Part shown: positions 25,137 to 46,051 of the stretch, piece after piece
How positions within the stretch are numbered: the stretch's first letter is position 1
Layout: each line of letters begins with the position of its first letter
Origin: Acephala macrosclerotiorum
Lineage: Eukaryota > Ascomycota > Leotiomycetes > Helotiales > Mollisiaceae
Direction of reading: 5' to 3'
DNA: 64,000 nt
Assembly (NCBI GenBank): GCA_014904845.1
Contig: MU119228.1
Location: 248,001-312,000, forward strand
Position numbers and translations under genes: made by a program
The notes under the pieces: model-generated
Told to the model about the DNA's origin: nothing
Databases searched by the model: none
Seen by the model: the letters and a program-made list of their open reading frames with translations, nothing else

Positions 25137-25976
25137 TGATATCCGAGCTTGAGGGATAAGAGCACTGATGAGATCAACCGAAATATACTCCTTGAATTTT
25201 GAGACCCGTTTATTATGTCCGTGGGATTCGCTTGACATATTCTAACAAAGTACACTGTCCCGTTCTTGATCACGTCGTCTTCGTACCTGGGACGATCTGC
25301 TGCTGTCACACCATCATCTTCCCAAGTTTGCTAATCGTCCCTAACATAATCGCGTGGACCATCACTCAAAATTTTGTGAAGCAAACCGTTCTCTAGAATG
25401 GATTGCGAGTCCATAGCTTTGGCAGGGACGTTGGAGTCAGTGGTGAACGCGGATACACCCAATATTCGCATATCAATCAAGTAGATACAATCGGAAGCCA
25501 GTTTTTACTGAACAGCAGGGTAAGGAGAGAAACACTTCCATAGCGTGAGAGGTTACTGCCTTTGAGATCGAGGTACAAGGTTGCGGAACAGCCGTAGACG
25601 AGTTTGTTGACCAACTCGGTCATGAGCCCCTGTAGCGATCAGGAGTGTCGATGAACATCATAGAAATTCTCCCAACTGCCATTGGAAGACTAGATGAAGC
25701 TATTGCTAGAATTTTTCTTGACATTATTGATAAAACTTCTTAAGCACGGAACTTATATACTGCGCAGACAAAGAAAGACGCCATTTGCTGCGTCAAGCGT
25801 GCGCATGAGGCGGGAACGCGACATGCTTTTGGAAGGGGTAAGCTCAGTGTAGAAAATGAACCAAATTTCTAGCCCAATTTCCAGTAGCATGAAACGAAAC
25901 AAAAATGCCTACGGGGAGGTCCAGAATCTAACTGTATAGATTTAAATGCTCATGTTGATCCAACCAATCAGAAGAA
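25137..25976. other. Intergenic region upstream of the tRNA gene
   Basis: About 840 bp with no gene that I can support. Confidence 0.4.
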
Positions 25977-25989
25977 GCCCTTATAGCTC

Positions 25990-26040
25990 GTATGTCTTAT
26001 CTAATCTCACCATTCATCAACCGTAACTAACAACTCCTAG
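25990..26040 (+). other. GT-AG intron-like insertion A in the tRNA D arm (51 nt)
   Basis: Starts GTATGT, ends CTCCTAG, and has a CTAAC branch motif at 26027-26031, ten bases before the end. It lies between tRNA positions 13 and 14 and splits the internal A box. All three signals match those of mRNA introns in this window. Confidence 0.8.
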
Positions 26041-26092
26041 AATGGTAGAGCGCGTCACTTGTATCCTTCATCTGTACATGACGAGGTTGTTG

Positions 26093-26142
26093 GTAAGTCT
26101 CAAATCTCAATTTCATGGAAACACTATCTAACAATGAAACAG
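26093..26142 (+). other. GT-AG intron-like insertion B in the tRNA T stem (50 nt)
   Basis: Starts GTAAGT, ends GAAACAG, with CTAAC at 26128-26132, eleven bases before the end. It lies between tRNA positions 52 and 53. Its last G restores the first G of the B box GGTTCGATTCC, so the B box stays intact in the DNA. Confidence 0.8.
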
Positions 26143-26171
26143 GTTCGATTCCAGCTGGGGGCGTCTATTAC

Positions 26172-26187
26172 TTTTTGCTGTTTTTTT
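26172..26187 (+). terminator. Pol III T-run terminator
   Basis: Runs of five and seven T, 9 and 18 bases past the tRNA 3' end. Confidence 0.7.
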
Positions 26188-39770: not shown

Positions 39771-41181
39771 ATGAGTACGTATGCTTCCCATGTTCAGGCT
39801 CATCACTAAGTTGAATAGTTCTCAACTATGTTCCACCACATAAGAACGAATACCACAACTTTGTCTCAAATCAACAATTCGCCTACCTTGAATCATTCGA
39901 GCTAGAGTCCGGGGAGGTTTTAGAGGGAGCTATTGTCGCGTACAAGACATGGGGAAGGTTGAACAATAACGGTGACAACTGCCTCGTTGTCTGTCACGCT
40001 TTATCCGGCAGCAGCGACATTTCAGACTGGTGGGGGCCATTACTTGGGAATGGAAGCGCATTCGATGTCTCAAGATACTTGATCTTCTGCGCTAACGTCC
40101 TCGGCTCACCTTACGGTACGACATCTTCGCTGAGCATAAATCCTCGGACTGGATGCATCTATGGCCCCGAGTTCCCTCAAACTACGATTCGAGATGATGT
40201 TCGGTTAGTATCCTTCTGATGAGTACCTTGAGGCCAAACTAATGTCCAGACAGCTTACACAAACTCGTCCTCGACGCCTTAGGAGTCTCAAGCGTCGCAG
40301 CAGTAGTCGGCGGATCCATGGGCGGAATGCTAACGCTCGAATGGCCACTTTGCACACCTGAGGGTTACGTGAAGAATATTATTCCAATCTCAACGTCCGT
40401 GGACCATGATGCTTGGGGCATTGCGTGGGCGGAGGCACAACGACAATGTATTTATGCGGATCCAGCTTTCGACGAGGGATACTACATTCCTTCTCCATCC
40501 ACACAACCTGCTGCTGGTCTTGCGGCTGCTCGTATGGTTGGAATGCTGACCTATCGATCGTCACCATCTTTCAATTCCAGATTTGGACGTGGAGAAGGAG
40601 GAAATCAAGCCAAGAAGATCAACGGGGTCGTCACAAATGGTACCCTAGTCAATGGCACTGCAAAGTGTAAGCTAGACAGGAAATCCAATAGGGCTTTGAG
40701 CACCGTCGCGAAAGACTTCAAAGCACACAGCTACCTTCGATACCAAGGCGAGAAGTTCGTCAAGCGCTTCGACGCGAACTGCTTCATCCACCTCACTCAG
40801 AAAATGGATCATCACGATGTCGTCTCGAGGCGTCTCCCGCAACTCAACATTGCCACTCTGTCTCGCAAGGAAGTACTCCAGAAAGTCTTCAGTGAAGCAC
40901 CAGGAAATGCTCTAGTCATAGGAATTGACTCAGATGTTCTATTCAGGCCCGAGCAGCAAGAAGAGATTGCGGATGCCTTGCCGAATGCGACGTTGGTGAT
41001 GATTCCTTCTGCAGAGGGACATGATGGGTTCTTGCTTGAGTTCGAGATCCTGGGTCCATTGATTGAGGCACATCTGAGGAGGCAATGTCCTTGGATTTAT
41101 GAGGGTCAGCCTATAGTTGTTGAGAACTCGACAAGTGACGTCAAGGATAGTGTCTTCGGTGAGGTTGAGTCTGGATGGTGA
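39771..41181 (+). CDS. Homoserine O-acetyltransferase (MET2/Fub5-like)
   Basis: The exons that carry the fold are 39819-40203 and 40254-41181. The alpha/beta hydrolase begins FELESGEVLEGAIVAYKTWG and has CHALSGSSDISDWWGPL and NVLGSPYGT. The nucleophile Ser is in VVGGSMGGM, the acid Asp in GIDSDVLFRPEQQ and the His in EGHDGFLLE. The family acetylates homoserine from acetyl-CoA, the committed step toward methionine or O-acetylhomoserine-derived products. The start is uncertain: the best fit is ATGA at 39771-39774 as a 4-nt first exon before a GTACGT intron, giving MILNYVPPHKNEY; an upstream in-frame ATG is possible. Confidence 0.88.
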
Positions 41182-41712
41182 TAGTTTGAGCATTGAAAAT
41201 TGCGCTACACTTTGTTCTGAAGTTTCAGCGATATTTAGATTCCTTGTTCAATTTTATTAATTCTTTATAAATCAATCCTACTGCGAGAACACGAAACTCG
41301 CTTTCGAAGCCAAGGCAATCCAAACTTTCCACTCGCCCAACTTCGGTCAGACCCACGATCTCCGTCACAGGCGACTTCCGCACACGACTCAGCACTTTAT
41401 CGGACCATTATGACAATATCTCTCCATCAAAGTCACCAGTTATCGATAGACGGCATTACCAGCAGGCGGAGCTGTCTATCTTCTTCACCGGCAATCCAAA
41501 GCCCGATCAGACGCCGATGTTCATGCTCACCACATCCTCACAACCGAGATCTCGAATCTCGAATCGCATTGTCTTGGCATCTAAAATCGTTTAGACTCCG
41601 ATTTGAGGTGTATATGACGTGTTTCTTTGTTGGAGTATGAATTTCTTATCTTTGTCCTGCTCCTCTGCTCGTTATCGGTCGAAGATCATCGACCAGTGTC
41701 AAACATCTCAAC
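41182..41712. promoter_or_regulatory. Upstream region of the aspartate kinase gene
   Basis: About 530 bp after the acetyltransferase stop; AT-rich at its start, then mixed sequence. No gene seen. Confidence 0.4.
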
Positions 41713-43556
41713 ATGCCTCTTCTCCTACCCTCAGATAACAAGACCTGGATTGTCCAGAAGTATGGCGGCACCAGCTTGGGTAAATTGTTACCACAGATCA
41801 CGGAAAATATTATCCCCTCTTACCTCGAAACCAACAAAGTAGCAGTCGTCTGCTCCGCCATCTCCGGTACCGAAAAAGCGAAAGGGACAACGAGCCTCTT
41901 GCTTAAAGCAATAGAATGCGCTATCACTCCAAGTCGACAGGTAGAACTCAACAACATCATCGATATCATTCGAGATGAGCATTTCAAAGCTATCAAAGCT
42001 TTGGGTCTTCGATCGAAAGGAGGACATGAAAAGCTATTCAACCACGCCGAAGCAGATGTGACAAAGGAGTGCGAGGAGTTGAAGAGCTTCCTCACCGCAG
42101 CGCAAACAATTGGTGAAGTATCCCCAAGATCAAAAGATAGAGTCGTCTCAACAGGCGAGAAACTCTCCTGCCTTATCGTCGTCGCCGCCCTCCGCAGCAA
42201 AGGGGTTCCCGCCCACCTCATCTCACTTTCCAACATTGTCCCACCCACCTCGACTACTCACAACCTTAACGCCAACTTCTTCACCAGCATCTCATCTCAA
42301 ATTCGCATCCTCCTTTCAACTCTACCAAAAGATGCAGTCCCAGTAATAACAGGCTTCTTCGGCCCCATCCTCCCCTCGCTTCTCCAAACCATCGGACGCG
42401 GCTACACGGACCTCACAGCAGCCCTAACAGCCACCGCCTTGTCAGCAACTGAGTTACAAATATGGAAAGAAGTAGACGGAATTTTCACCGCCGACCCGAG
42501 AAAAGTTCCTTCAGCACGGTTACTCGAAACCGTAACTTTAGAAGAAGCGTCCGAGCTGACATTCTTCGGATCCGAAGTCCTTCATCCTGCTGTTGCCGAG
42601 GTGGTTAGACGGGGCGGGGTGAGAGTTAGGGTGTTGAATGTGAAATTTCCAGATGGGAAAGGGACGGTCATATGGCCTAGTGTTGAGGGGGTGGTTGTTG
42701 AGCATGTTGGAGGAGGAAGTGGGGACACAACGAGGTCAAATTCCCCCGCGAATGGATTTATGGCGGCGAATGGTTATTATGGCGCCAGTCAATCTCGACG
42801 CGCTCCCACGGCGTTGACAAGTAAGGATGCGATTGTGCTTGTGAACATCCAGTCGAGTAGACAGACGAAGTCGCATGGCTTTCTGGCGCAGGTGTTTAAT
42901 GCGCTTGATCAGCTGAACGCGGTAGCGGATTTGATCACAAGTAGTGAGCAGAGTGTCAGTCTTGCATTGTCGAATGTCGATAATGGAGATGGAGTCGAAG
43001 CGGGTATTGAGAAGGTCGCGCAGGCTTTGGAGAAATGTGGGAAGGTGGAGGTTCAGAGAGGAATGGCGATTGTGAGTGTGATTGGACATAAAATGAGGAA
43101 TATGGTTGGCATCGCAGGTAAGTTGCCTGTACAAAGGATTGTTGCACCGACTAACAGGTCTCAAGGCCAAATCTTCTCGACGCTTGCGAGTGGTGGGGTG
43201 AACATTTATTTGATCGGACAGGGAGCTAGTGAAATCAACATCTCGTAAGTTCTGTGTTTGAGTGGGAGAATGGAAATTGACTAGTGGACTTCAGGCTGGT
43301 GATCAAGGAAGAAGATGCATTGATCGCGATGGATATCATTCACACCAATGTGCTAGGTATACCGCGAATTAAAACAACGCATACTCCTATTTTCCAAAAT
43401 AGTATGATGAAAGGTAAAGTTTCTAAGCCAAGGAGCAAGTTCGTTGCTGATCTTGAACAGGACCTTGGTTGTATTGAGAAGAGTCTAACGATGGGAATTC
43501 ATAGTGAAAGAGGATGCCCATGGAATTGCGTAGAGAGCGTATACATAAAAATCTAA
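41713..43556 (+). CDS. Aspartate kinase (HOM3/Fub3-like)
   Basis: Exons are 41713-43117, 43166-43244 and 43295-43556. The kinase domain opens with VQKYGGTSLGKL and has VCSAISGTEKAKGTTSLLL, VSTGEKLSC, GFFGP, GRGYTDLTAALTA and DGIFTADPRKV. Two ACT-type regulatory segments follow (VLVNIQSSRQTKSHGFLAQVF and the block around IGQGASEINIS). The 48-nt intron at 43118 is a multiple of three and can be mistaken for coding sequence; splicing gives MVGIAGQIFSTLASGGVNI, as expected. The enzyme phosphorylates aspartate, the first step to homoserine. After LVIKEEDALIAMDIIHTNV there is a longer than usual tail to 43556, so the last exon end may be wrong. Confidence 0.86.
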
Positions 43557-44397
43557 TAAAAGTTTGCAAAATTTCGCATCGATCAAAATTCTTGAGCTCC
43601 ATGCAGAACGCCTTTGTTTCTTTGAGAACTATCGCAAAAACTGAACCTCGAGTACGCGCCTATTGAACCCTCTGCCCAGAAGAGTGGCAAATCATTGAGT
43701 ATCAGTAAAATAGCTACGTCGAAGTCGTTTCACTCAGAGCTGCCCTCTGACAGCTCATCAAGAATGAATATCTGTCACGTGGGGTCTTCCTGCTCTCCCG
43801 AGACTCCCTGGAGACAAGTCAGCAAGATCATGTCCACTGCGGCACTGCCTCACTGCCCCACACAACAAATCTATGCCGAGAATATAAACCCCGCGGCTAA
43901 CCCCATATCTCTCAGACGACTCTCGAATTTCAAACCCCGAATCTGCAGGAAGTGGAACTGCTTATCTTTCCTCGCATTCAAACCCCAATCTCTTGTCTTT
44001 CCTCGCATAGAAACTCCAATCTCTTATCTTCCATTTTTTTCGGGTGGCGCTGGCCAGAAAGAAGGTCAGAAATGAGGTGATATCAGCGGGATCTATATTC
44101 TGTTCCGGCGTCTGAAATTTGGTTGTTCGTCGTGAGAATGGGAAGTTTGGAATTGAGGATAATTTAGGCTATGAAGGACGATGCAGACGCAGCGGGATTC
44201 CAAATTTTCAGAAAACCGAGATGAGGGATTGGAAGAAGCGAAAGGATTGCATTGAGAAGGTGAGAACTACTCCGAGGATGGTGTATAAGATGCTTCATGC
44301 ATTGATATTTGGGAAAGAAACAGCCAGATCTTGCTCAATTAAACAATACTCATTCATCCATTCGTTTCTAACGACCACTCAAACTTGAGCTTTTGAC
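43557..44397. promoter_or_regulatory. Upstream region of the O-acetylhomoserine lyase gene
   Basis: About 840 bp. Contains CACGTG at 43776-43781. The open frames at 43695-44075 and 44119-44388 have no family features, so I call no gene. Confidence 0.4.

Positions 44398-46051
<1,654 letters not shown>

What the first reader, a model, noticed from the sequence alone, without database searches (positions are those of the whole stretch)
25977..26163. tRNA-Thr(UGU) gene interrupted by two spliceosomal-type GT-AG introns plus a canonical tRNA intron
Removing 25990-26040 and 26093-26142 gives a tRNA in which all four stems pair and the invariant bases are in place. Each insertion has a GTATGT or GTAAGT donor, a CTAAC branch motif 10-11 bases before a TAG or CAG acceptor, and a length of 50-51 nt, identical to mRNA introns here. 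They lie in the D arm and T stem, where the tRNA splicing endonuclease does not cut, and the A box is split. Known precedent: mRNA-type introns in Pol III-made fungal U6 snRNA genes. I know of none in a tRNA gene. If spliced, this tRNA would need both the spliceosome and the tRNA endonuclease.
Basis: partly seen in the sequence, partly recalled or inferred. Interest (0 to 1): 0.96.

Follow-up and report, generated by a model that had tools for sequence, protein, structure and literature searches.

The report
tRNA genes interrupted by messenger-type introns
In a fungus, a threonine tRNA gene and more than twenty other tRNA genes are broken up by short introns of the kind found in protein-coding genes, so the cell would likely need its messenger-RNA splicing machine to make essential tRNAs.

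Summary
At 25977-26163 lies a tRNA-Thr(UGU) gene with two GT-AG introns (51 nt in the D arm, 50 nt in the T stem) and a 14-nt anticodon-loop intron. It is not a lone oddity. The genome matches Acephala macrosclerotiorum (Helotiales). Of 57 tRNA genes fitted there (76 loci examined), 24 carry 31 such introns, 49-59 nt long, outside the anticodon loop. 30 of the 31 have a YTRAY branch motif with its A 9-16 nt before the 3' end. In five genes, removing the introns gives exactly an intron-free paralogue: Thr-AGU 71/71, Trp 71/71, Glu-CUC 77/77 three times. Four Ala-AGC genes, each with two GT-AG introns, have identical exons, while introns and flanks are close to shuffled similarity. Queries with spliced Lys-UUU, Ala-AGC, Gly-GCC and Thr-UGU found no unbroken copy. 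Upstream TATA-like boxes and T runs suggest Pol III. None of 31 forms the bulge-helix-bulge tested. Best reading: the spliceosome removes these introns, and the tRNA endonuclease the anticodon-loop ones. No RNA data were available, so splicing is inferred. My literature searches found no such precedent.

The parts
25941..25947 (+). TATA-like box TTTAAAT, 36 bp before the tRNA start
   Evidence: best match to TTTAAATAAGCA (9/12) at distance 36; median distance 37 for 23 interrupted and 38 for 33 uninterrupted tRNA genes
25977..25989 (+). tRNA-Thr(UGU) exon 1 (acceptor 5' strand, positions 8-9, D stem 5' strand)
25990..26040 (+). GT-AG intron 1, 51 nt, between positions 13 and 14; splits the A box
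   Evidence: same position in Thr-AGU genes L127, L151, L152 and Arg-UCG L128
26027..26031 (+). branch motif CTAAC of intron 1, A 10 nt before the intron end
26041..26063 (+). exon 2, first part: D loop to position 37; anticodon TGT at 26060-26062
26064..26077 (+). canonical-position tRNA intron, 14 nt, after position 37
26078..26092 (+). exon 2, second part: position 38, anticodon stem 3' strand, variable region, T stem up to position 52
26093..26142 (+). GT-AG intron 2, 50 nt, between positions 52 and 53 of the T stem; its final G restores GGTTCGATTCC, so the B box stays whole in the DNA
   Evidence: same position in Thr-AGU L151/L152 and in Glu genes
26128..26132 (+). branch motif CTAAC of intron 2, A 11 nt before the intron end
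26143..26163 (+). exon 3: G53, T loop, T stem 3' strand, acceptor 3' strand, discriminator G73
26172..26187 (+). T runs (TTTTT and TTTTTTT), likely Pol III terminator

Best explanation
This is a nuclear tRNA-Thr(UGU) gene, in a fungal genome matching Acephala macrosclerotiorum, that carries two ~50-nt GT-AG introns with mRNA-type splice signals in its D arm and T stem plus a 14-nt anticodon-loop intron, so its precursor would likely need both the spliceosome and the tRNA splicing endonuclease to become a tRNA. Shown from sequence: the introns and their boundaries, GT-AG introns of the same kind in 23 other tRNA genes, and, for five of those, an intron-free paralogue identical to the spliced form. 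Inferred: transcription by Pol III from the upstream TATA-like box and the B box, which stays intact in the DNA; recognition of GT, branch A and AG by the major spliceosome, as in Pol III-made fungal U6; folding into a cloverleaf only after these introns leave; then end trimming and removal of the anticodon-loop intron by the Sen endonuclease and ligase. Several isoacceptors appear to have no uninterrupted gene, so this splicing is predicted to be essential.
For: (1) Anatomy: 31 introns of 49-59 nt in 24 of 57 fitted genes; donors GTAAGC 11, GTATGT 5, GTAAGT 5, others 10; ends TAG 14, CAG 13, AAG 4; branch A 9-16 nt upstream in 30 of 31. (2) Same design as two annotated mRNA introns of 48 and 50 nt in the window. 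(3) Spliced = intron-free paralogue, discriminator left out: L127=L014 71/71, L044=L027 71/71, L149, L150 and L090 = L129 77/77. (4) Four Ala-AGC genes: exons identical in all six pairs, same-position introns 0.62-0.76 alike against shuffled 0.61+/-0.04, upstream flanks 0.53-0.69 against shuffled 0.59+/-0.03. (5) No unbroken copy rang for Lys-UUU, Ala-AGC, Gly-GCC or Thr-UGU. (6) ARAGORN: 24/24 spliced recognised, 3/24 unspliced and those with wrong identities. (7) Upstream box 9.65/12 in interrupted, 10.36/12 in uninterrupted, shuffled 7.43. (8) 0 of 31 meet the bulge-helix-bulge test. (9) Runs of four T in 2 of 31 introns against 7.35 (mononucleotide) or 5.75 (dinucleotide shuffle) expected, P 0.008 / 0.037: weak support for Pol III.
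Against: No RNA evidence at all. The parser demanded a GT-like donor, AG end and a loose branch motif for 21 of the 24 genes (three were placed by hand), so those features are partly built in; the tight branch distance was not. ARAGORN is permissive: 1267 of 4800 random deletions of equal size also gave some tRNA call (10 of 200 for the window gene), and on the spliced set it names three of 24 genes otherwise than my parse (L124, L148, L112). Pattern searches required an intact B box and a T run, so these features are partly ascertained. Whole-genome DNA searches miss split copies (one search missed four known ones), so copy counts are lower bounds and further split copies cannot be excluded. 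The assembly may lack some genes. Discriminator G73 differs from A73 of the four Thr-AGU genes. Some introns have weak donors (GTTCGT in L138, GTCAGA in L153). No runs of five T in 31 introns is not significant (P 0.11-0.19). U6 has uninterrupted copies here, so the genome does not put introns in every Pol III gene.
Confidence: 0.9

Rival explanations
1. The interrupted genes are dead copies, and intact genes make the tRNAs.
For: A review passage (PMC4090602) says D- and T-arm insertions in eukaryotic tRNA genes are mostly seen in one of many synonymous genes and taken as pseudogenes. Some families here have an intron-free member (Thr-AGU, Glu-CUC, Trp). L154 looks decayed.
Against: Exons of four interrupted Ala-AGC genes are identical while introns and flanks are close to shuffled similarity. 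Splice signals are kept. No unbroken Lys-UUU, Ala-AGC, Gly-GCC or Thr-UGU was found.
Confidence: 0.03
2. The introns are non-canonical tRNA introns cut by the tRNA endonuclease at bulge-helix-bulge motifs, as proposed for Cyanidioschyzon merolae.
For: Same kind of positions (D and T arms) and several introns per gene as described for nucleomorph and C. merolae tRNA genes (PMC4090602 passages).
Against: 0 of 31 show the tested 4-bp central helix plus outer pairing (motif model from recall). GT, AG and branch motif are kept while the rest is strongly diverged between paralogues. Lengths match mRNA introns; the nucleomorph inserts quoted for Guillardia theta are 3-24 nt.
Confidence: 0.03
3. The introns are real and spliced, but retention is a regulated switch that sets tRNA supply, so spliceosome load tunes translation.
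For: Some isodecoders have both interrupted and uninterrupted genes (Thr-AGU, Glu-CUC, Trp). The lichen rDNA-intron paper read in passages (PMC8527467) argues that spliceosomal rDNA introns slow growth.
Against: No expression data; presence and absence look like plain gain and loss.
Confidence: 0.03
4. Assembly or sequence artefact.
For: Single draft assembly in 778 contigs.
Against: 31 different introns with consistent boundaries on many contigs, with signals and paralogue relations that assembly error would not make.
Confidence: 0.01

Closest known systems
Spliceosomal introns in fungal U6 snRNA and U3 snoRNA genes
   Same: Short GT-AG introns with mRNA-type signals inside small structural RNA genes, with presence and absence differing among paralogues (U3: PMC5832005 passages; U6 recalled).
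   Different: Those are snRNA/snoRNA genes. Here they are tRNA genes, many isoacceptors, two in some genes, often beside a canonical tRNA intron.
Spliceosomal introns in lichen-fungus rDNA
   Same: Ectopic spliceosomal introns in a structural RNA gene (PMC8527467 passages).
   Different: rDNA and Pol I, not tRNA genes.
Non-canonical tRNA introns of nucleomorphs and Cyanidioschyzon merolae
   Same: Introns in D, anticodon and T arms, up to three per gene (PMC4090602 passages).
   Different: Endonuclease / bulge-helix-bulge type or unknown splicing; Guillardia nucleomorph inserts 3-24 nt; no GT-AG or branch signals reported in the passages read.
Canonical nuclear tRNA introns
   Same: The 14-nt insert after position 37 in the window gene.
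   Different: Applies only to that third intron.

Membership tests
Major (U2-type) spliceosomal intron | GT donor close to GTRNGY | tested here: met
   GTAAGC 11, GTATGT 5, GTAAGT 5, GTAC-type 5, others 5 of 31; both window introns meet it
Major (U2-type) spliceosomal intron | branch motif YTRAY a short way before the 3' end | tested here: met
   A 9-16 nt before the end in 30 of 31; window introns 10 and 11 nt
Major (U2-type) spliceosomal intron | AG 3' end and host-typical length | tested here: met
   TAG/CAG/AAG in 31 of 31, 49-59 nt (AG was required by the parser); two mRNA introns of 48 and 50 nt
Major (U2-type) spliceosomal intron | removal by the spliceosome, lariat intermediate | not testable with these tools
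   no RNA data held
Functional tRNA gene | complete cloverleaf after intron removal | tested here: met
   five other interrupted genes equal an intron-free paralogue after removal
Functional tRNA gene | Pol III transcription (TATA-like box, A/B boxes, T run) | tested here: inconclusive
   sequence signals present, A box split by intron 1; no transcript data
Bulge-helix-bulge (archaeal-type) tRNA intron | 4-bp central helix between two 3-nt bulges at the splice sites | tested here: not met
   0 of 31 introns; the model of the motif was written from recall
Canonical eukaryotic tRNA intron | position 37/38 | tested here: not met
   not met for the two GT-AG introns; met for the 14-nt insert 26064-26077

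The most novel reading that the evidence does not exclude
In Acephala macrosclerotiorum the spliceosome is an obligatory tRNA-maturation enzyme: a large share of the nuclear tRNA set, including what look like the only Lys-UUU and Thr-UGU genes and every Ala-AGC and Gly-GCC gene found, cannot be made without it. Many precursors pass through two unrelated splicing machines, and tRNA supply is coupled to mRNA splicing.
Probability: 0.8. Interest if true: 0.97.

Novelty: new variant of a known kind. Interest (0 to 1): 0.94.

Why it matters
tRNA introns are taught as the domain of a dedicated endonuclease and ligase, and spliceosomal introns as belonging to Pol II genes with a few exceptions. A genome in which two dozen or more tRNA genes carry mRNA-type introns would break that division. 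It would show that the spliceosome works on short Pol III precursors as a routine, would make a natural system for intron gain and loss (intron-free and intron-bearing identical isodecoders side by side), and would explain tRNAs missing from annotations, since the standard finders tried here miss or misname these genes unspliced.

Tried and rejected
Basidiomycete origin, my first guess: rejected by the aspartokinase match and the contig length. tRNA genes found by ARAGORN or Rfam in the unspliced window: none. A pattern with CTAAC before the B box: 15 places, fewer than the reversed-pattern control (42), so used only as a lead; one search showed the seven plus-strand places, of which three were tRNA genes (C27, C96, C313), and the later scan of both strands of those loci added no other. 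B-box patterns ending A..T (37 places against 24 control) or Y..R (145 against 28): letters were no longer available, so most of those places were not read. A crude scan for mRNA introns joining open frames in the window gave 13 candidates of 42-100 nt, too loose to use as a length control, and less tightly sized than the tRNA introns. Pseudogene and bulge-helix-bulge readings: see rivals. Intron families copied between genes (introner-like): pairwise intron identity 0.634 on average against 0.613 shuffled, maximum 0.78, so no recent common source is visible. Rows with doubts: L132 (Gly-CCC-like, one mismatch in the acceptor stem) is kept in the 24 but is the least certain; L112 is Leu-like in my parse but SeC to ARAGORN; ARAGORN calls L124 and L148 Thr where my parse gives Ala-AGC. 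L017, L028 and L031 are tRNA hits that my parser did not fit, so they are not among the 57.

Full report
What is in the sequence. Positions 25977-26163 hold, in order, 13 nt of tRNA, a 51-nt GT-AG segment, 23 nt of tRNA ending one base after the anticodon TGT, a 14-nt insert, 15 nt of tRNA, a 50-nt GT-AG segment, and 21 nt of tRNA. Without the inserts every stem is full (7, 4, 5, 5 pairs). Neither ARAGORN nor Rfam at its gathering threshold recognises the gene as it stands; ARAGORN names the spliced form tRNA-Thr(tgt) with a 14-nt canonical intron.

Where it comes from. The window lies in a 69.66-Mb assembly of 778 contigs, on contig C27 of 396,554 bases. The aspartokinase of the window is identical to that of Acephala macrosclerotiorum over 494 of 510 residues, and the 16 missing residues are one 48-nt in-frame intron; that protein's longest contig is also 396,554 bases. 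So the window is very probably A. macrosclerotiorum, an ascomycete of the Helotiales (placement recalled). The relative Phialocephala subalpina was annotated with 91 tRNA genes coding for all amino acids (PMC5148876, passages); those passages mention no such introns.

How widespread. A family search gave 37 tRNA hits, with only 63 of 2302 candidates scored. ARAGORN on the 35 stretches around them called no Lys, Glu, Asp, Phe, Cys or Tyr gene; the two stretches without any call, L045 and L046, turned out to be interrupted Lys-UUU and Glu-UUC genes. A B-box plus T-run pattern gave 88 matches against 5 for the reversed control. Of 76 loci given to a parser that allows up to two GT-AG introns and one anticodon-loop intron, 57 fit a tRNA (54 by the parser, 3 placed by hand), and 24 of the 57 carry 31 GT-AG introns: Thr-UGU, Thr-AGU x3, Ala-AGC x4, Glu-CUC x3, Glu-UUC x2, Gly-GCC x2, Arg-UCG x2, Lys-UUU, Gln-CUG, Gln-UUG, Pro-CGG, Leu, Trp and a Gly-CCC-like gene. 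By my count, 13 introns lie in the D arm or just before it, 15 in the T stem, two at the anticodon stem-loop border and one in the variable region. A wider scan of held loci added one more candidate (L092, Ala-CGC, D loop). The same scan on reversed sequences gave no fit (0 against 56).

Why these are introns of working genes. First, removing the insert from one Thr-AGU gene gives the exact sequence of an uninterrupted Thr-AGU gene (71/71); the same is true of a Trp gene (71/71) and of three Glu-CUC genes against an uninterrupted one (77/77). Second, the four Ala-AGC genes have identical exons, but their same-position introns are 0.62-0.76 alike against 0.61+/-0.04 for shuffled introns, and their upstream flanks are 0.53-0.69 alike against 0.59+/-0.03. 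Most of these values are a little above the shuffled mean, as expected of old homologues, but far from the exons. Exons held fixed while introns drift is what selection on a spliced product gives. Third, the Lys-UUU query found one place only, the interrupted one. The Ala-AGC query found no unbroken copy (it also missed the four split copies, so it speaks only about unbroken ones). The Gly-GCC query found exon 1 at four places (C114, C419, C54, C37), stopping at base 30 in each, and no unbroken copy; only C114 and a further gene, C93, were read in full. The Thr-UGU query found only its own pieces and an uninterrupted Thr-AGU gene at 75%. Fourth, the Thr-AGU gene at C276 lacks both GT-AG introns and the anticodon-loop intron that C79 and C173 have, as a copy made from mature tRNA would; this is an inference, and gain in the others is equally possible.

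Why the spliceosome. Lengths (49-59 nt), donors, a branch motif with its A 9-16 nt from the end in 30 of 31, and TAG, CAG or AAG ends match the two mRNA introns in the window that an annotated protein fixes, 48 nt (AAG) and 50 nt (CAG). A bulge-helix-bulge test failed for all 31. The parser's own demands make part of the donor, end and branch agreement circular; the branch distance and the paralogue identities are not.

Transcription. Interrupted and uninterrupted genes share an upstream TTTAAATAAGCA-like box (mean 9.65 of 12 in 23 genes and 10.36 in 33; shuffled 7.43) at a median 37 and 38 bp, and a run of four T follows within about 40 bases in 20 of 24 interrupted and 31 of 33 uninterrupted genes (some fetched stretches end early, and the pattern search had asked for a T run). 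All 15 T-stem introns leave the B box readable in the DNA because the intron's AG supplies the missing base, but the search pattern asked for that box. Runs of four T occur in 2 of 31 introns against 5.8-7.4 expected (P 0.008-0.04), a weak sign that Pol III must read through them. Intron 1 splits the A box, so promoter use in these genes is itself a question.

What is known. Ten literature searches (open-licence PMC only, so subscription papers are not covered) listed no paper that I recognised as reporting a spliceosomal intron in a nuclear tRNA gene; I saw listings and abstract starts, and passages of six papers. A tRNA-intron review, read in passages (PMC4090602), does not use the word stem 'spliceosom' in its main text, says D- and T-arm inserts in eukaryotes are mostly taken as pseudogenes, and names nucleomorphs and C. 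merolae as exceptions. PMC11782384 (passages) on intron classes mentions none either. U3 (PMC5832005, passages) and lichen rDNA (PMC8527467, passages) are the nearest cases of spliceosomal introns in structural RNA genes; fungal U6 is recalled. U6 in this genome has four full-length, uninterrupted matches.

Verdict. What is missing is RNA: splicing, its dependence on the spliceosome and its order relative to the endonuclease remain predicted.

Noticed in passing
L133, L130, L120, L155, L156, L158, L145, L131 (G000 C23, C17, C9, C98, C117, C270): tRNA-like genes with an acceptor, D and T arm but a very long anticodon region (64-83 nt in the Rfam alignments of L133, L130 and L120; L155 and L156 also score as tRNA). 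They may be tRNAs with long anticodon-loop introns or a separate Pol III RNA family.
   Followed up: partly
L138 (G000:C37:320656-321076): Arg-UCG T-stem intron with the odd donor GTTCGT, which repeats the GTTCG just after its 3' end, so the intron is flanked by a direct repeat of the B-box start.
   Followed up: no
L154 (G000:C98:23546-23806): Glu-like locus with a T-stem GT-AG intron and a D-loop insert that starts GTAAGT but seems to end in TTG instead of AG; perhaps a decaying copy or a non-AG end.
   Followed up: no
L046 (G000:C96:184513-185039): The 3' end of tRNA-Glu (T loop and acceptor strand) is repeated once more downstream of the Glu-UUC gene.
   Followed up: no
window 26163: Thr-UGU has discriminator G73 while the four Thr-AGU genes read have A73.
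   Followed up: no
window 40243-45770: Aspartokinase (41713-43415) next to ORFs that look like a homoserine acetyltransferase (by eye) and an O-acetylhomoserine sulfhydrylase similar to FUB7: a gene cluster of the fusaric-acid type by resemblance only.
   Followed up: no
G000 C37, C261, C379, C8: Four full-length uninterrupted U6 matches, so the Pol III-made U6 is not invaded here.
   Followed up: partly
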